Positions 25,634 through 59,656 of a DNA stretch of 64,000 nucleotides are shown here, piece by piece. Positions within the stretch are counted from its first letter, which is position 1. Each line of letters begins with the position of its first letter. The notes beneath the pieces are model-generated. The model saw nothing but the letters and a program-made list of their open reading frames with translations, did not search any database and was not told the DNA's origin. A program made the position numbers and the translations under genes. The DNA comes from Ianthella basta (taxonomy: Eukaryota; Porifera; Demospongiae; Verongiida; Ianthellidae), in the NCBI GenBank assembly GCA_964019415.1, contig OZ025875.1:481001-545000 (forward strand), written 5' to 3'.

Positions 25634-49256
<23,623 letters not shown>

Positions 49257-49379
49257 ACCAATCACCCTATGGAGCGGACTTTGTGTTGTTTGTAATGCCA
49301 TTATGCTTGCATGGACAGCACATAATGTGATTTACTGTTTGCACCATAATTATGTCATAGTTCAGCTGCTGACGTTAGC

Positions 49380-49580
49380 AGCCAATCAAAGAACGTTGCC
49401 ATGACGTTACCATAACACTGACCCTAATATCACCTCATATGTCCCATTACGTCAGCTACTAAATTGGTCCTACCTCCCTATAAGGTAAAGAAATTTTTGG
49501 TCATCCTGTTAGGATCCGGTTATAACTGGTTGGACCAACCCAAGTCTATAAATTCCTGCGGTCGGTCCGTTGTCAACAAA
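49380..49580 (+). promoter_or_regulatory. CCAAT/CRE/TATA promoter-like region
   Basis: In order: GCAGCCAATCAAAG (about 49379), GTTGCCATGACGTTACC (about 49395), TTACGTCAGC (CRE-like, about 49447), AATTGGTCC (inverted CCAAT, about 49462) and TATAAA at 49547-49552. The start site would fall near 49577 (CAAACCAGAGAG). This is the clearest TATA promoter in the window, and no ORF begins behind it. An LTR U3 region is an alternative. Confidence 0.5.
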
Positions 49581-49898
49581 CCAGAGAGAAGAGAAAACTA
49601 GAGAGGAGGAGCGTGTGCTGGTGTGTAGCGGTACAGAGAAGAGCACAAAGAAGACGAGATGCCTGTTGAAGAATTAAGCGAAAGTCGGAACAACTGAGCG
49701 AAGACTTCTAATGGTCAAAAGACAGTGGGCAGATGAGTCTGTAGTCGTAGCCGAAGAAGATGTCATGGTTGTGTCGCTAGCAAATATCCGTGTCGTGTGC
49801 TTACCGTTTATCGGGCGTGTGGTGATGACGGCTAATGTGTGGCATAGCGAGCATCCAGTAGACGGTAGCGCAGTGAGTAGTTAACAGAGCACTAAACC

Positions 49899-49912
49899 GT
49901 TACCATGGTAAT
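49899..49912. promoter_or_regulatory. X-box-like palindrome
   Basis: GTTACCATGGTAAT, one base from a perfect palindrome, within the presumed first exon of the non-coding locus. Confidence 0.3.
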
Positions 49913-50195
49913 AGCCCGCGGGACGAGAGGAGAGCGCATAGGAGTGGAGTGTGCCCTGTGTGGGTTGTGTGCCATGATGTGTATGCCCCTGTGGGTAGAT
50001 AATCATGAGCATGAAGAATTGTTACCACCGATGTGCCTTAACACCTGTGTGCGCTGAAGTGTGTACCAGTATGTGTAGAATTAACCAACCGTGGAGTGCT
50101 GTGTTCGTTAGCTTTATCTGGTTCATTAAATGCTCAGAAATTTGCTTCAGTTTTTAGTATACTTTGTGTCCGGTTGGTTTTCATTGAGTCGACCT

Positions 50196-50201
50196 AATAA
50201 A
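50196..50201 (+). terminator. AATAAA polyadenylation-like signal
   Basis: AATAAA followed by AGAGTGTTTTGATATC, a GT/T-rich downstream context. It could end DNHD1 (a 3' UTR of about 950 nt) or a short transcript from the TATA box at 49547; a solo LTR with U3-R-U5 would look similar. Confidence 0.35.
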
Positions 50202-51407
50202 GAGTGTTTTGATATCCGTATTTATCATCAATCTATCGTGTTCAATGTGTTTTGGAATTGATATGGGCAGTCAATATTTTCCTAAGTGCATTGTGAAATA
50301 TGTCTTGCGTAAGAGGTAGACGACCCAGTGTTCACAGCTTAGGAGGCGTTTATGCACACATGTATGCAGCAGCTCAACTAGCAGGGACAAGGCCGTGTAA
50401 AGAAGTAGTACCAACACCACATATCACTTACCTGGCCCGTTCACCTGTATCTAAGCAGTGAAGCATGTAGTAGAGTACCACGGTTCCTCAGGAGCAGCCC
50501 ACCAGTATGTGTATTCACCATGTGTTGTCAGTCAAGCACCTACACCTGTGGATTTTAACTTGGGTTACCTAATCTGGAGTGTAGCTAGCTATCTCAGTGA
50601 ATGGACATCTAATGGAGTGGCATGCATCTGGTATCACTATGTATTACATAGCAGAGAGTTTAGCAGTGTTAATGCCGGAATGAGACAGTGTTCATAAGAA
50701 CCCCATCACAGCAGCACAGGTTTGTTTTGATAGTGTTAGAGTAGGGATGAAGATCAGGACCAGCTATGCCTTAGGGTGATGATATCCAGCAATCAGCAGC
50801 ATGTGTGTGTGTGTGTACCACGAGGCACTTGTAAAGTCAGTATTGCAGATTTGTCGGGGAAAAAGAAATTCATGCTCTAATACTTGAAGAGATTCCATAT
50901 TGCACCAGGATGTGATGGCATGCAAGTGGATAAGTAGTGTCAGTGTACAGGTAGTAATACAAGACTAAGTGGATGGATTAAGTATGGAGCAAGTTGTTTA
51001 GCAAGCTGGCAGAGTGGTGTTCAGGACAGGTCAGTAGGCTATTGTAGGTGGGGGAAGGGCCTGTGTACTTCATTTTGCAGGACAGGATTGGCAGCTAGAT
51101 TTGGATGTACCATAGATTTGGCAGGGCAAGAGTGAATTCAGGACAATAAAGCACAGGTCATCACGTAGAAGTACAAGCACAAAGCTGTAAGTATTGTCTA
51201 ATCGTAGGACAGTGCCTTCCATTTTTTTAGGACCCTATTGAATGCAGGAAGTTAGCAGTGATTGTTACCGTTATGTCAAATTGGGTAGGCCTACTGGAAA
51301 GGGAGAGGGGGCTTTACCATCAGTGTTTGCAGGAGTTCAAGCAACTGTGGCGTTGGAGAGGGTCACCATACTGGATCATTAGGCTTCAGCTTTCTATCCT
51401 TCACTAG

Positions 51408-53760
51408 GTTGGTTGGTTTTAGGAGTAGGAGCGTGCGTGTACCTTCAGTTTTGCAGGACATTTAATGTAAAAGCAGGAAGTATGTATGTAGCCCACAGCA
51501 GCCTGGCCATGCCCACAAAGTACCAGACAGCTTATGGGACACCTAAGCCAGCAGACAAAGCACCGCAGATTTTGGTGTAAGATAGCTATTTGTAGGCGAT
51601 GGGGGGAATATCTGAATTCAGTTCCGCAGGGCCTTGGAAGCACCAGAGTATCACAGCCCAGTCCAGCTGAACACATAGGCAATGAGCAGCTTTATCGCCA
51701 TCTTGCAACATATGTATGTATCTACAGCATATGGAGTCCTTAGTGATAGCATGCACGTAAGCTTGCAGTAGTGATGGTTTCGTGAGTCTCACTTGAGCTA
51801 TAGTATCCTAGGCAGGGAAGGGGGGTCTCTCTTGTCAGTTTTGCAGGACTACAGCACATCCAATTGGCAGCAAACGAAATGGCCACATTAGGGAAATACA
51901 AGCCACTACAGGCATCATCAGTACGTCAACAGTGTCTAGGCTATTTGTTGCGGGGGAGGGATGTACCTTCAGTTTTACAGGACTAAATGGGCAGCTAGTG
52001 GTGTGAGGATCTGATCTGAGCAAGTTTGTGCGAGAGCAACTTGGGAAGAGCCTCATTAGACAAGCAAAGAATGTAAAACCATCTTTGATTGTGCAACTTG
52101 GTGAACTCCACCTTATTCCACCTCGTCCCTTGTCTTGGTTAGTTGCATGGTGTATGGTAGGTGCATAGTGTGTTCAATTTCACTTCTAGGTGACTACAAG
52201 CACCCTATGGATATAATCCAAGAATACACTAAGCAGTTTGCGAGTTACGAGAGGTTCGCCGTAATCAGTGCTAATTGCTTCCTGTTTGGTTCATGTGAAC
52301 ACTACCTATGTGCTTTTCCGTAAGTTGTCGTAGCAATAGTGGGGGAGGGGGGTATCTGTTGTCAGTTTTACAGGACTTCACAGAAAATTCATGGTGTGGA
52401 GCAAAGCCACCGACCACTGTCAGTGCCGTTAGATGGGATACATCTGCTTCTACCCCACAAGTTGTTACCCTGTTGTGGCATCTACAGTACTGCAGCATCA
52501 GTGTGGTTAAATGTAGTAGGCAGGTTATCTGTAGGGGGAAGGGTGTGTGTATCTTCGGTTTTGCAGGAGAAGTATTGCAGAGGCAACAAAAGCATGTACA
52601 TCACACACAGCCTGGCCTTTCACCATGGAGTACCAACAGCTTACAGGACATCTAAGCCAGCAGCTTAAAGTCCCACAGATAGGAGCCCAGCCAATCTTTC
52701 AATGTACAATAGGTAGTCGTAGGCGGCGAGGGGGTATCTACCATCAGTTTCACAGGTACCAGTGGCTGTCAGGATCCAGTCCATTTGTAGGCACATGACT
52801 TTATCTCAACATCTTGGCACTGTGTATTACAGCACCTCGGCCTTGAAATGTGATTTAGCCGTAAGTGGGTTAAACTGTGTTCATGGATGTTTTAACATGC
52901 AGTAGCATTGGACTTCTTGGTTTACATCACCTGTGTGCATCTTATTTAGTTGCAAGAGTTTCATTGTTAGCTGTTAGTAGTTTTAGGCAGGGAGGGGGAT
53001 CTCTCTTGTCAGTCTTTGCAGGACTACAGCGTTTTTTTGGCGACAAGATATGGCCACAATTCAATGTGATTACAGAGTGTTAACCAATCAGTATGTACAA
53101 CGCTAGGTGTAGGAAGGAAGAGGTGTATCTTTAGTTGTGCAGGATTAAGCCAACCAGTGGTGTGAGGAGCTTTCATGCAAATCTCTTCGACGAGGCCAAT
53201 TAGGCAAGCCAGGAAAGTAAATGTATGTGGCAAAAGTTTGCATCTCCACTAGTTAGTTTTCCAGTGAATTTTTCTTTTATTCCATTGCCTTGGTTGGATT
53301 CAGTGTGTTGCATGGTGCATGGTAGGCGGAAGTGTGTGTGCTTGGCTTCACTCCCAGGTTAAATATGTACCGCAAGCAGCCAAGGGATAAAAGAGAATTC
53401 TGAGACAGTGCAAGATTCTGAGATTTGCCGGCGTCAGTGCTAAATGCTTCCTTAGGTGGGGACAGGGCGGTCTGTTGCTAATTTTACAGGTTGTAAAGAG
53501 AAATTCGCTGCTGAAGCAATCAAGCACATTTTACATGAGAATTCTGGAAAGTATTGGTGAAAACATTTGATTCTAACCCATGTTGCTTGCTGCATGATAG
53601 GTTAGTGTGGTGCATCTTGTCCATTACAGGAAGTGTAAATGGTCTGAATCAGCATTGCATGTGATAGCCATAGTTTGGACGGCGAGCGTTTGCAGTGAAA
53701 TGTGCAGTTTTGTCGTTAGGTAGCTTGTGGTGGGGAGGGAGTGCGTATCTTCACTTTTGC
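51408..53760 (+). repeat. Diverged tandem duplication of about 1.1-1.2 kb
   Basis: Segment 51408-52520 recurs at 52531-53700 with the same order of landmarks: CAGCCTGGCC..GTACCA..ACAGCTTA..CTAAGCCAGCAG (51490/52605), CTCTCTTGTCAG..GCAGGACTACAGC (51828/53001), AGTGGTGTGAGGA (51990/53155), GTTGCATGGTG.ATGGTAGG (52142/53307) and CAGTGCTAA.TGCTTCCT (52266/53434). Offsets run 1113-1184 bp. A third partial copy may begin near 53715. Confidence 0.7.
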
Positions 53761-54050
53761 AGAATTCAGATGCAACCACCTAGAGGCTGGGAGTGTATGG
53801 TGTCCTTCCTTTAAAGCTCGAGTGCATTTCTTCACATTCCAAGTATCAGTCCAGTGACTTCTTTACCTGTATCGTCCCAATTCGCATGGTGTGTTGCACA
53901 GGTACAAAATCCATTAATGTGATTTGGTGTTTGCTCGAATTGAAATTGCCGTTGGTTGGATGTGTGTGTGGCAAAGGGGAGGGGGGTCTCTATCACTGCA
54001 GGAGTGAACAGGTGTTCCAGAGCTAAGATGAAGGAATAAGATAAAATTGA

Positions 54051-55136
54051 ATCCAGTGTGAAATTCATTGTGCAAAGGGGTGTCGTATTGCTTGCAAGAT
54101 TGTGACAATTGCTCAGTGGCTAAAATGCAAAAAAAAATGGCAAGGTTTTTGTGTGGCTAATATAAGAATGTGTAAGAGTGTTGATGCAAGTGTGTGCACA
54201 TAATTTCTTGTCCATTTTTCATATGCGTGACGTACAGTGTGCAATATATGGAATGTGCTTTGTTTTGTGCCGTTTTACGTAAATCGTGGATTTGTTTGGT
54301 TTGGAGAAGTGATGTGATCTTGTCGGAGTTTTGCTTGTGCATAAGGAGTGTGTTATCTCGTAACATTTTATGAATGTCGTGTTGGTGTTTGAATCATATG
54401 GAGTGGAGTATGGTAATGGTCGTTATGCTGTAATGAGATGGTTTACAAATTGCATATTGGTTGATATTGGACAGCTTCACCTTGTCACTACTGTTGTGTG
54501 TTGGTCTGTAGCGCATGCTTGAGAATTTGCTGAGGTAATTGTAAAAATCGTGTGTTTCAGTTGCTTGTAACGGATGAAGGTGCAGTATGTGTTGTGGACT
54601 TGCCTCCTATGCACACACATCATTCACCAGGACTATGTCGTCATGGGGAGAATAACGAATGTAATCAATGCTATCGGCTGTGTAAGATTGGAAATGTGGA
54701 AAATTTGTTCGCAATGCCAACCATACCAACCTCAAATTGTTCGTGTCAGCTGTACTACAAGGTATATGTTGCAACCATGCGTATGCCGCAGTGTATGTCC
54801 CTCCTGCATGCACACATGCACAGCCATGCATCAGGGCCGGCCGCGTAAAGTAATGCAAGGCATCTGAAAGAGCAAACCAGCCTCCAGTCTACTTATCTTC
54901 GCTAAAAGGCTATAAAAGCATTACCTTCCAAGTTATCATCATGCATCCATGCTGAGTATGGGTAGAGCTATTGTGAGTGCACAGTGATGTGAAATGCAGT
55001 TGATACCATATCACAGATTGGCTTTATAATTGTGGTAGCTTGTTGGTAGGTATGCGTTGTTCCATCTCCCAAAGGCATACACTCCTATCTCTAGCCAACA
55101 TGAAAGCCCTCAGCACTACAGCAGAGTGTCAGTAGA
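54051..55136. other. Gene-poor stretch, no convincing feature
   Basis: AT-rich to neutral sequence. Two overlapping open frames of about 98 codons at 54552-54867 are rich in Cys and Met but show no splice context, codon pattern or recognisable motif; treated as non-coding. Confidence 0.4.
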
Positions 55137-56320
55137 ATGTCGCCCCCTTGACTGCATGAAGCGGAGTGGGATGGATAGCTAACAGCAAAAAAAAGAGTAG
55201 GACAGCTAGCTTACAGCGAGGGAGAGAGTGGAGCGGATAGCTAACGGCACGGCGAGAAGAGAGAATAGGACGGATAGTTAACGGTGAAAAGAGAGAATGG
55301 GACAGATAGCTAACCTCGAGAAGAGAGAATAGGATAGATAGCTAATGGCGAGAAGCGAGAGCGAGTAGGACAGACAGCAAGGAGAGAAGACGGATAGCTA
55401 ATGGCGGGAAGAGGGAAAGAGTAGGATGGATAGCTAACAGCGAGGAAGAGAGAGTAGGATAGATACATAGTTAACAGCGAGAAGAGAATAGGACAGATAG
55501 TTAACAGCAAGAAAGAGTAAGACTGATAGCGAGAAGCGAGTAAGACGGATAGCTAACGGCGAGATGAGAGAATAGGATAGATAGTTAACTGCGAGAAAGA
55601 GAATAGGATGGATAGCTAACAATGAGAGGAGAGCGAGCGAGTAGGACTGACAGCAAGGAGAGAAGATGGATAGCTAATGGCGGGAAGAGGAAAGAGTAGG
55701 ACAGATAGCTAACAGCGAGAAGCGAGTAAGACGGATAGCTAACAGCGAGAAGAGAGAATAGGACAGATAGTTAACGGCGAGAAGAGAGAATAGGACAGAT
55801 AGTTAATGGCGAGAAGAGAGTAAGACGGATAGTAGGACAGATAGCTTACGGCGAGAAGAGAGAATAGGACAGATAGCTAACGGCGAGAAGAGAGTAAGAC
55901 GGATAGCTAACAGCGAGAAGAGAGAATAGGACAGATAGTTAACGGCGAGAAGAGAGAATAGGACAGATAGTTAACGGCGAGAAGGGAGTAAGACGGATAG
56001 TAGGATAGATAGCTTACGGCGAGAAGAGAGAGTAGGATGGATAGCTAACGACGAGAGGAGAGCGAGCGAGTAGGACTGACAGCAAGGAGAGAAGATGGAT
56101 AGCTAATGGCGGGAAGAGGAAAGAGTAGGATGGATAGCTAATAGCGAGAAGCGAGTAAGACGGATAGCTAACAGCGAGAAGAGAGAACAGGACAGATAAT
56201 AGGACAGATAGCTAACAGCGAGAAGAGAGTAAGACGGATAGTAGGACAGATAGCTTACGGCAAGAAGAGAAAGTAGGATGGATAGCTAACGGCAAGAAGA
56301 GAGAAAGTAGGACAGATAGA
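55137..56320. repeat. 33-bp GATAG-rich minisatellite with higher-order structure
   Basis: About 35 tandem copies of a unit close to GACAGATAGCTAACGGCGAG plus AAGAGAGAATAG, drifting by substitution and small deletions. A composite block (GAGCGAGCGAGTAGGACTGA then CAGCAAGGAGAGAAGA) recurs near 55345, 55630 and 56066, which indicates expansion of multi-unit blocks. Confidence 0.85.
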
Positions 56321-56681
56321 AGCTCCAGCATGTAATACATATACTTGTGTACTGCGTGTAAATATGTAGGAGGGGAGTTTTTTTGTAAGTCCTGTAGACT
56401 GCTCGAGAGCAGTAGGTTAGCAATAGCATCTCCCCTGTGCATGTCCATGGGGCACGCTGCACCCTCAGGTCCTCGTCCTGTGCCCTGGAGCTGGTCACCG
56501 TGGCAACACGAGACCAGTACCGAGAGGGGTGCTTTGCATGTATGTTTGCTGTACACCATGATAAACCAAAGTGCCCAGATATTCTGGGACCTGAATAATT
56601 ATATTATTTGTATCTTAACTATAAGAGTCTATACTTAATGACGAATATAATAATTTGTAGCACGCTAGTACTACTGTACAT
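56321..56681. other. Intergenic stretch downstream of PLBD
   Basis: Unique sequence between the minisatellite and the PLBD stop codon. Short open frames here lack support; it likely includes the PLBD 3' UTR. Confidence 0.4.
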
Positions 56682-59656
56682 TTAGTTGTTAAAGTTGATC
56701 ATGACAGGCTGAAAGTTGAACTCATCAGGATGTCCTTTGGGCCTTGCCCACTCGGTGTTGGACCATTTGAAGGGGGGTAACTCCTGGTGGGTGGGACCAC
56801 TGGTTGCCATGACGGTGAAATTCTTAAAGAACTCGTAGTTCACCACCTATAAACACAGGAGACAGCAGTGTTGGTATGTTACTGAGGGAGACTTGTGCAG
56901 AAAACAGTTGTGTGTAAATGACACACTAATTGCCCAATAATCCAATTAAACCTTGCCAGCTTGCCTAGAAAATGCTAGTAATGGTAGGTAGGTAGCCATG
57001 GTAACAATTGCCCATGGTTTGGGAGTACTGCCTGTATTTGGGTCATACAAACCTTGTTGTCTGTGCCGCCATGGCAACGGTGCCCCAGTGCACCAAACGG
57101 GTATGTTCCGTTAACTGGGTTGAGGTCACAGCGGGCACTGATACCGTTTTCACCCGAGTAGGGTGGTGTGCAGTTACAAGCAGCCAGTGGATCATTCATG
57201 AAGTCATTGTACCTGCATTGGCCAAGCATTGGGGTGCATGGTAATTCAATCTCAGTAGACCACAGACCCCACCCACACCAAACCCTCAGTAGACACACAT
57301 CCTCCCATACAAAACCCTCAGTAGACATGTCCTCCCACACCAAACCCTCAGTAGACACAAGTCCATCCACACCAAACCCTCAGTAGACACACGTCCTCCC
57401 AGACCAAACCCTCAGTAGACACACGTCCTCCCACACCAAACCCTCAGTAGACCACAGACCCCACCCACACCAAACCCTCAGACACACATCCCCCACACCA
57501 AACCCTCAGTAGACACATGTCCTCCCACACCAAACCCTCAGTAGACACATGTCCCCCACACCAAACCCTCAGTAGACAGATGTGCTCACCTCATGAGTTT
57601 GATGACACCATCCATGTTCACTGCCTTGCTCTGGTCCCTAGCATAGATAAGAGCCCGGGGGCTTCCATAATGGGTGAACCAGAGGCCATACTTGGCAGCA
57701 GCATCAGCAAAGCCACTTGCTTCATAAATGTCTGGGAAGTACCTGAGTGCAGGAGGAGGGGGAGGCAGGGGGGGGGGGGGGGGGGGGGCAGGGATTAGTC
57801 TCAGACTCGCCATTCTTCAGTCAGCACTGAAACGTCATGCTGGAAACCCACTCATTGCAGATTCGTGCGTGCACACAAGTATCAACACACACTGCTGCAC
57901 TCACATACGCTCACCTACTTCCACCCACTCACCCAACACACCACACACTCACGGGATGTTAAAGCTGCCCCAGTACTTCTCCTGTTGCAGGTAAGCCGAC
58001 ATGTCCCTGTACTCCACCTTGTTAGGAATCTGCTCAAGAACATAAAATGTGCCAGCCTTTAAGTGAGGGCTCCGAGGCTGGAACTTGTTGTAGTCTGCAA
58101 TCATCCACTGGTTGTTGTAAGTCCCACTGTTGTACACCTCAAATATCTGACACCAGTCCTCGGCTGTCAGAGCCAACCGGTTGGCCACGACACTTCGAAC
58201 TCCTTCCAATACTGACTCAGGCACGACGTACTTCCACAGGTCACTGTTCATGTTGCCGTTAGTGGTCTCCATGGTTGCCAGGCCAGAGCTGAGCACATAG
58301 AAGTCGTCTCCACTCATGAGTATCCCTGGATACGAGGAGAAGCTCTGATTGGCTGCTGGCACTGTTGTCTGCTGGGAAGGTGTCACGAGGAAGGGTAGAT
58401 CGTAACGCTTGTACACTCGTAGCATGCTCTGGTAGACATCCCAAGTATCGTGGGTGAAGAAGAGGTCTGCATTGTTCAGGGCAAGCTTGACCAGCGCAGA
58501 ACAGGAGCCCGAGCCAAACACACCATTAGTCTGTCCACCTCCCAAAACAGCCTCCAGTGCCTCCAAATCACCGGCATACTGAAGCAGCCTGAAGGAATGG
58601 AAGAGGAGTGTATTGTTGTTGCTGGCTTGGTGTAGAATCAATGTACCCAATGAACGGAGATTGTCGTGCTAAAGGCAATAGGTGGCAGTTGAAGCACTCA
58701 CTTGAAACCAAAATCTGATATTGCCGGCTGCTCTGAGGAAGAAGCATAGCCATCCACTAGACCTGCCAACTGGTCATAGAACAAGCTTACCTGAGAGAGG
58801 ACAGAGGTCACACTATTCAATCCCATCACACCTTGTGCCACTCCTACCACACCTCGTGTAACTTCTACCACACCTTGTGTAACTTCTACCACACCTTGTG
58901 TCACTCCTACCACACCTCATGTCACTCCTACCACACCTCATGTCACTCCTACCACACCTCATGTCACTCCTACCACACTTCATGTCTCCCACCGCATCAT
59001 GTCACACCACATCACTGTAAAGCAGAGCACACCACACAGCAGTATGCCATACACTTGCCTGGAACCAGTATGGGTCATCTTTGTTCTTTGCAATCTGCTG
59101 TTTCAACCAGTTAGTGTTGTTGTCAAGAAACTCCATCAAGTTGGTGCAGTATTTGGAAGGTTTCTCACAGTAGCCTGCATAGGTGTTCTGCCAGTGCATG
59201 GAGATGTAAGGCGCAGTTGTGAAACCTTCAACAAACCCAGCAGCGTAGGCCAGTGCTGAGGAGTTGATCTGACTCGTCAATTCGCCGTACACATACAACT
59301 CCATCCAACTAAAAGATTGACAAAAGCACCAATCATATTTTTATAAATAGCAACGTGACGTTTCGAACTACTTGGAGAATTTAATAGCAGTAGCAGTATT
59401 AGCAGAAGCAAAAGTAGCTCACAACTGCACAAGTCGCTCACCCCGTTGACGCGTATAGAGAAGGGTCGAACCAGGCCTGGACCGGAGACACGTCCCCTTG
59501 TTCCAACAGTGGACGCTTTGTTGCTCCATCCAGCTCCACAACGCGGTGATTTCCATCACGGGCCACGATAACACCATAATACTTCCTCTCCGCACACACG
59601 GAAATCAACTGAAAGGACAAACAAACGCAGAAGCAAAGGAAAACAGATGACGCCAT
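56682..59656 (-). CDS. PLBD2: Phospholipase B-like protein (lysosomal Ntn hydrolase)
   Basis: Lysosomal or secreted lipase/amidase of the phospholipase B-like family. Start MASSVFLCFCVCLSFQLISV (signal peptide) at 59656. Exons (leftwards) include 59442-59656, 59055-59308 (AAGFVEGFTTAPYISMHWQN), 58703-58792, 57957-58590, 57590-57745 (YGLWFTHYGSPRALIYARDQ), 57050-57215 (GENGISARCDLNPVNGTYPF, HRCHGGTDNK) and 56682-56846, ending FQPVMINFNN. The autoprocessing cysteine is in GSGSCSALVKL (about 58481-58515), with DTWDVYQSMLRVYKRYDLPF and SGTYNNQWMIADY further on, both family hallmarks. The GENxISARxDLNPxNG block is closer to PLBD2 than PLBD1, so the paralogue call is moderate. Introns carry two minisatellites and a poly-G run. 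Divergent from the GTPBP8 gene. Confidence 0.85.
57266..57592. repeat. 31-33-bp minisatellite in a PLBD intron
   Basis: About ten copies of CACCAAACCCTCAGTAGACA plus a variable CATGTCCTCCCA tail. Unit lengths drift. Confidence 0.85.
57767..57789. repeat. Poly-G run
   Basis: About 21 consecutive G in a PLBD intron. Confidence 0.85.
58830..58985. repeat. 21-bp minisatellite in a PLBD intron
   Basis: About seven copies of TCACTCCTACCACACCTCAT plus G, the same unit as at 35574-36005 in DNHD1, with a TAACTTCTACCACACCTTGTG variant at the left. Confidence 0.85.

What the first reader, a model, noticed from the sequence alone, without database searches (positions are those of the whole stretch)
51044..54001. 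Array of at least 18 ultrashort intron-like cassettes in a locus with no ORF
Seen: 18 segments of 29-51 nt start GT (often GTAGG or GTTAGG), carry a G-run, then TATCT/TCTCT and a pyrimidine-leaning TCAGTTTTGCAG end, and are followed by GA. They are spaced 98-260 bp. The segment I translated between them (51081-51186) is closed in all frames, and no long ORF crosses the region. Known: GT-AG introns this short are near the physical limit for animal spliceosomes. Inference: a non-coding RNA locus built from micro-introns, or a repeat whose unit mimics an intron. I know no described family with this grammar.
Basis: partly seen in the sequence, partly recalled or inferred. Interest (0 to 1): 0.8.

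Follow-up and report, generated by a model that had tools for sequence, protein, structure and literature searches.

The report
Splice-like repeat array, one locus
In a stretch between two genes of an unnamed animal, a G-rich motif of about 50 letters ending in CAG recurs eleven to fourteen times at uneven distances; its end looks like the end of an intron, but the start signal an intron needs is not conserved, so it is best read as an old, decaying repeat rather than a gene full of tiny introns.

Summary
The array is real. Fourteen copies of a ~50-nt motif (TAGG, G-runs, TATCT/TCTCT, TTCAGTTTTGCAG|GA), all on the + strand, lie in 51.03-54.01 kb. Models trained without a copy and its presumed block partners recover 11 of 14 at E<0.004, three weakly (E 0.13-1.4), and 0 of 4 further weak segments. 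They sit in a ~1.1-kb higher-order tandem duplication (61% identity). No coding frame beyond control, spliced or not. Searches of the 209-Mb genome found no second locus, but they are insensitive to diverged copies.

The micro-intron reading is not supported. GT stands at the 5' boundary in 6 of 14 copies; 326 of 379 AGs in the locus have a GT 29-51 nt upstream anyway. Donor strength equals dinucleotide-shuffled upstream sequence (P 0.58, 0.13). Twenty introns read by eye in two conserved genes of this genome are 63-411 nt. Block copies show no slower substitution in cassettes, though fewer gaps.

Best reading: a decaying higher-order repeat whose unit mimics a 3' splice site. RNA-module function or real splicing is not excluded; RNA data would decide.

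The parts
51032..51093 (+). cassette, AG end 51080
   Evidence: 30.1 bits; held-out E 0.0029
51289..51341 (+). cassette, AG end 51332
   Evidence: 29.6 bits; held-out E 0.00051
51405..51467 (+). cassette, AG end 51456
   Evidence: 35.9 bits; held-out E 0.00051
51577..51641 (+). cassette, AG end 51629
   Evidence: 33.2 bits but held-out E only 1.4
51796..51854 (+). cassette, AG end 51846
   Evidence: 37.4 bits; held-out E 1.1e-5
51932..51993 (+). cassette, AG end 51980
   Evidence: 38.3 bits; held-out E 4.1e-6
52324..52386 (+). cassette, AG end 52373
   Evidence: 42.1 bits; held-out E 7e-7
52516..52574 (+). cassette, AG end 52566
   Evidence: 37.9 bits; held-out E 0.0003
52704..52762 (+). cassette, AG end 52755
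   Evidence: 33.8 bits; held-out E 0.0023
52971..53030 (+). cassette, AG end 53021
   Evidence: 40.9 bits; held-out E 3.7e-5
53100..53150 (+). cassette, AG end 53142
   Evidence: 30.2 bits; held-out E 0.0033
53437..53502 (+). cassette, AG end 53489
   Evidence: 30.2 bits but held-out E 0.38
53716..53774 (+). cassette, AG end 53762
   Evidence: 30.7 bits; held-out E 0.00035
53954..54013 (+). cassette, AG end 54001
   Evidence: 23.0 bits; held-out E 0.13
51187..51230 (+). weak intron-like segment without the cassette motif (GTAAGT, T-tract, TAG)
   Evidence: not hit by the profile; donor score 2.2
52157..52190 (+). weak intron-like segment (GTAGGT ... TCTAG)
   Evidence: not hit by the profile; donor score 4.1
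53322..53358 (+). weak intron-like segment, block duplicate of the previous one
   Evidence: not hit by the profile; aligned; donor score 2.5
53601..53629 (+). weak intron-like segment (GTTAGT ... TACAG)
   Evidence: not hit by the profile; donor score 3.3
51405..52283 (+). higher-order repeat block 1: cassettes 51456, 51629, 51846, 51980 and weak segment 52190
   Evidence: aligns to block 2, 602 of 987 columns identical, 159 gap positions, E 2e-36
52517..53452 (+). higher-order repeat block 2: cassettes 52566, 52755, 53021, 53142 and weak segment 53358
   Evidence: a further partial copy may begin near 53702 (52506-52566 vs 53702-53762, 69%, E 0.001)

Best explanation
A decaying two-level repeat array in non-coding DNA between two convergent genes. 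A ~50-nt G-run / T-tract / CAG motif exists in many same-orientation copies with unrelated spacers (shown). A block of ~1.1 kb holding four of them and one weak segment was tandemly duplicated, with signs of partial further copies (shown by alignment; that the motif multiplied before the block is inferred). Since the block duplication, cassettes and spacers have collected substitutions at the same rate (shown). The likeness to introns comes from the unit's CAG|G end and G-runs in GT-rich DNA, not from a maintained donor and acceptor pair (inferred). The mechanism I commit to: local copying and unequal exchange, with no maintained splicing function; whether the array is transcribed is unknown.
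For: Block duplication with single-base indels. Flanks of 84 pairs outside the block relation align like random places of the locus (means 43.2 downstream and 42.1 upstream vs 40.9 in 354 controls), while 7 block pairs score 82.0 and 56.6. Ungapped identity in the block pair is the same in cassettes and spacers (0.812 vs 0.814; mismatches 38 of 194 vs 108 of 588, Fisher P 0.75). Unevenness of column conservation fits a neutral star simulation (P 0.29). Donor-like GTs no better than in shuffled upstream sequence. No RNA-family match; none of 8 segments folds better than 1.7 sd from its shuffles; best spliced frame 217 aa vs control mean 194, 31% of 100 control sets as long. No second locus found.
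Against: Cassettes of the block pair have fewer gap events than spacers (13 per 194 aligned vs 78 per 588, Fisher P 0.026) and, gaps counted, are slightly more alike (0.764 vs 0.71; 7.5% of circular shifts do as well): a hint of constraint. C, A and G of the final CAG are 14 of 14, though A and G were fixed by how the copies were anchored. Best donors of cassettes beat random AGs of the locus (P 0.019; in the 29-51 nt range P 0.002), an advantage that composition explains. Why ~50-nt units were copied without flanks is not explained.
Confidence: 0.55

Rival explanations
1. A long non-coding RNA (or its DNA) in which the cassettes are repeated binding modules for an RNA- or DNA-binding protein, multiplied by tandem repeat expansion as proposed for Xist repeats.
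For: Island of similarity about 45 nt long, chance level outside; 14 of 14 copies in one orientation; fewer gaps in cassettes than in spacers of the block pair (P 0.026); TATA-like box at 49547 and AATAAA at 50196 and 51145 on the + strand; G-runs and a T-tract are plausible protein targets (recalled).
Against: No slower substitution in cassettes; the neutral model fits column conservation; no transcript evidence; no consistent fold in 8 segments; G-quadruplex predicted in only 3 of 14.
Confidence: 0.27
2. Real ultra-short, G-rich spliceosomal introns (about 28-68 nt) in a non-coding transcript.
For: CAG|G acceptor with a T-tract. Short introns of this genome can be G-run rich: a 65-nt chaperonin intron has five G-runs. 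In human, 12 of 22 listed ultra-short introns have G as the commonest base and several have very poor signals (PMC4463651, passages). Sponge ribosomal-protein introns go down to 37 bp (PMC3412847, passages), relevant only if this animal is a sponge, which was not tested. Best donors beat random AGs of the locus (P 0.019; 29-51 nt P 0.002; all 18 P 0.0006). The four weak segments have donor scores near those of real introns (mean 3.03 vs 3.46).
Against: GT at the 5' boundary in 6 of 14; the donor advantage vanishes against dinucleotide shuffles of the same upstream sequence (P 0.58, 0.13); cassette donors are weaker than those of 10 real introns (P 0.0013); no donor enrichment at 48-75 nt (P 0.14) or 55-130 nt (P 0.99); 20 of 20 real introns read are 63 nt or longer.
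Confidence: 0.12
3. Local intron multiplication: one intron copied by reverse splicing into its own transcript (introner-like), now decayed so that many copies have lost their donor.
For: Unit copied without flanks, one orientation, CAG|G junction; introner families with median lengths from 30 nt upwards exist (PMC9860276, passages).
Against: Same donor failure; introner families have 5 to over 2,000 copies per genome and sit in many genes, and no copies elsewhere were seen here (with limited sensitivity); among animals and land plants that paper reports introners in only two groups, both animal.
Confidence: 0.06

Closest known systems
Higher-order tandem repeat (minisatellite-like) arrays
   Same: tandem blocks made of diverged shorter units, one orientation, non-coding, decay by substitution and indel
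   Different: the short units are separated by roughly 70-340 nt of unrelated sequence instead of standing head to tail; Tandem Repeats Finder reports no array between 48.8 and 55.1 kb
Human G-rich ultra-short introns (43 nt in ESRP2, 49 nt in NDOR1; PMC4463651, passages)
   Same: length range, G-runs, weak or missing branch site and splice signals
   Different: those have GT-AG ends and experimental evidence of splicing; here GT is not conserved among copies and no splicing is shown
Xist local tandem repeats (PMC6316617, abstract and outline)
   Same: non-coding, locus-specific, expanded sequence modules
   Different: no transcript, protein partner or function is known here
Introners (PMC9860276, passages)
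   Same: short repeated units resembling introns, with unrelated flanks
   Different: seen at one locus only, GT not conserved; target-site duplications and terminal repeats were not searched for

Membership tests
Spliceosomal GT-AG intron | GT at the 5' boundary of every unit | tested here: not met
   GT at the conserved 5' boundary in 6 of 14; other GTs lie further upstream at no fixed place
Spliceosomal GT-AG intron | donor context better than composition predicts | tested here: not met
   P 0.58 (28-70 nt) and 0.13 (29-51 nt) against dinucleotide shuffles; better than random AGs of the locus, P 0.019; matrix recalled
Spliceosomal GT-AG intron | AG acceptor with pyrimidine tract | tested here: met
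   C before AG 14 of 14, T 11-13 of 14 at -7 to -4; AG itself was fixed by anchoring
Spliceosomal GT-AG intron | length within the range used by this genome | tested here: inconclusive
   20 introns of two genes are 63-411 nt, a small sample read by eye
Spliceosomal GT-AG intron | removal from RNA | not testable with these tools
   no RNA data
Protein-coding gene with short introns | open frame after splicing | tested here: not met
   217 aa best path vs control mean 194, 31% of 100 control sets as long
Introner | copies in many genes of the genome | tested here: inconclusive
   none comparable in 200 kb of flanks; the genome pattern finds 3 cassettes here, 1 place on C7 and 1 control match, but detects only 3 of the 14 known copies
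Higher-order tandem repeat | tandem blocks with internal diverged units | tested here: met
Known structured RNA family | Rfam model match | tested here: not met
   0 at gathering in the window; one match in 49300-56700 at E 0.89, 19 bits against a cut-off of 43
lncRNA with repeat modules | transcription | not testable with these tools
   only promoter and poly(A) look-alikes

The most novel reading that the evidence does not exclude
One non-coding gene of an animal multiplied a ~37-55-nt G-rich intron inside itself to 14 or more copies, by reverse splicing or block duplication, and still removes them through G-run-dependent splicing with relaxed 5' sites.
Probability: 0.08. Interest if true: 0.8.

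Novelty: new member of a known kind. Interest (0 to 1): 0.27.

Why it matters
If ordinary, it warns that G-run plus CAG units in GT-rich DNA look like introns by chance: 326 of 379 AGs in this locus have a GT 29-51 nt upstream. If spliced, it would be a dense test bed for how micro-introns are recognised and how introns multiply within one gene.

Tried and rejected
Rejected: protein-coding gene with tiny introns (eight window ORFs scanned with Pfam, the two from the array region without match); known structured RNA; tRNA; hairpin or G-quadruplex unit (8 segments folded; 3 of 14 with a predicted quadruplex); LTR or dispersed element upstream (49400-50400 found only once); longer introns with donors 55-130 nt upstream; other shared motifs in the spacers (top 8-mer count 4, shuffles mostly 3-4). 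A donor/acceptor distance histogram over 264 kb showed no short-intron peak.

Limits of the tests. Introns were read by eye, guided by an asparagine-tRNA-ligase alignment and PF00118 exon matches, with frame used to choose between sites; one of the 20 was mis-indexed by one base, which lowers the mean donor score printed there (2.42; about 3.3 over the other 19, by hand). The donor matrix is recalled and approximate. The background mean is distorted by a -99 filler and is replaced. One search counts 85 non-block pairs and 6 block pairs, 84 and 7; in both, pairs such as 51080/51980 and 51332/52373 stay among the non-block pairs although one search treats them as partners (they give two of the four best downstream flank scores). 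One search takes five cassette segments of the block pair (one weak), four. The 11 rows reduce to 3 cassettes here and 1 place on C7. DNA searches of the genome are coarse: one search did not list even the paralogous copies within this locus.

Literature: the listings showed no description of such an array; papers opened are PMC3412847, PMC4463651 and PMC9860276 (passages) and PMC6316617 (abstract and outline).

Full report
SETTING. The window is G000:C8:481001-545000 of a 209-Mb, 96-contig assembly. Wnt genes are present (34 exon matches; none in the 14 prokaryote control genomes), so it is an animal; the phylum was not determined. The array lies between a + strand gene whose frames end near 49.2 kb (dynein-heavy-chain-like by eye; Pfam matched neither of its two ORFs tested) and a - strand phospholipase-B gene (57949-58668, E 2.4e-76; 59002-59340, E 3.9e-19).

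OBSERVATION. Fourteen copies score 23.0-42.1 bits with a model made from them, the best other place in the window 8.1 bits. To avoid circularity each copy was held out together with its presumed block partners: 11 of 14 were found at E<0.004 (best 7e-7). The other three gave E 0.13, 0.38 and 1.4, the last no better than the best place outside the array, and 0 of 4 weaker segments were hit. Pairs that are not block duplicates are 0.5-0.8 identical at -30 to -21 and -10 to +4 around the AG, about 0.4 at -20 to -11, about 0.33 at -40 to -31, and near chance (0.23-0.30 vs 0.257) beyond +4 and upstream of -40. With a 5' anchor, similarity begins at about TAGG (0.6-0.86 at the four letters) and is 0.18-0.35 upstream of -14.

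ARCHITECTURE. 51405-52283 aligns to 52517-53452 over 987 columns, 61% identical with 159 gap positions, including single-base indels. Each block holds four cassettes and one weak segment; a partial further copy may begin near 53702. Gapped flank alignments of 84 pairs outside the block relation look like random pairs (means 43.2 and 42.1 vs 40.9 in 354 controls), unlike 7 block pairs (82.0 and 56.6). So short units without recognisable shared flanks came first and block duplication later (inference).

SPLICING TESTS. A GT lies at the conserved boundary in 6 of 14. A GT 29-51 nt upstream is found for 326 of 379 AGs of the locus. Against dinucleotide shuffles of each cassette's own upstream sequence the advantage is gone (0.52 vs 0.65, P 0.58; 29-51 nt: -0.29 vs -1.45, P 0.13). 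Donors at 48-75 or 55-130 nt are not enriched (P 0.14, 0.99). Twenty introns of that gene and a chaperonin gene, read by eye, are 63-411 nt. On the other side, short introns of this genome may carry G-runs (a 65-nt chaperonin intron is 46% G with five runs; four short introns of the other gene have none), the four weak segments have real-intron-like donor scores (mean 3.03), and human ultra-short introns often have poor signals (PMC4463651). Splicing stays possible but unlikely.

CONSTRAINT. In the block pair, cassettes and spacers differ equally by substitution (38 of 194 vs 108 of 588, P 0.75), but cassettes have fewer gap events (13 vs 78, P 0.026). Column conservation is no more uneven than in a neutral star simulation fitted to the mean (P 0.29). 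Changes at T columns are not biased to C beyond the block background (22 to C and 15 others, against 45 and 44; P 0.43).

GENOME. DNA searches that together cover 51000-54100 list only this locus. They are coarse: one search listed only the query itself, not the paralogous copies beside it. The pattern GGGGN{4,26}TCAGTTTTRCAGG hits three cassettes here and one place on C7, with one match for the reversed control; it misses 11 of the 14 cassettes, so diverged copies elsewhere cannot be ruled out. The 14-copy model finds nothing comparable in 200 kb of flanks (best 12.1 bits).

VERDICT. A real repeat array, known so far from this one locus, with an intron-like unit; micro-introns not supported; most likely no function that depends on splicing.

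Noticed in passing
55164-56319: Purine-rich ~32-bp minisatellite, about 30 copies with nested periods (62, 94, 168), downstream of the array.
   Followed up: no
35571-36010 and 58827-58986: The same 21-bp minisatellite unit (up to rotation and one base) occurs at two places 23 kb apart, in the regions of two different genes (rotation compared by eye).
   Followed up: no
49547-50220: TATA-like box, a short open frame from about 49710 (by eye) and an AATAAA at 50196: possible small + strand gene, found once in the genome by DNA search.
   Followed up: partly
L038:2035-2099: A 65-nt chaperonin intron with five G-runs, which may point to G-run enhancers in some short introns of this animal.
   Followed up: partly
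G000:C18:6639233-6692383 and G000:C16:1991483-2026924: Apparent tandem copies of a CCT chaperonin gene and of Wnt genes (several matches to the same part of the profile).
   Followed up: no
57251-57578: 32-bp minisatellite (CCCACACCAAACCCTCAGTAGACACACGTCCT) in the region of the phospholipase-B gene.
   Followed up: no
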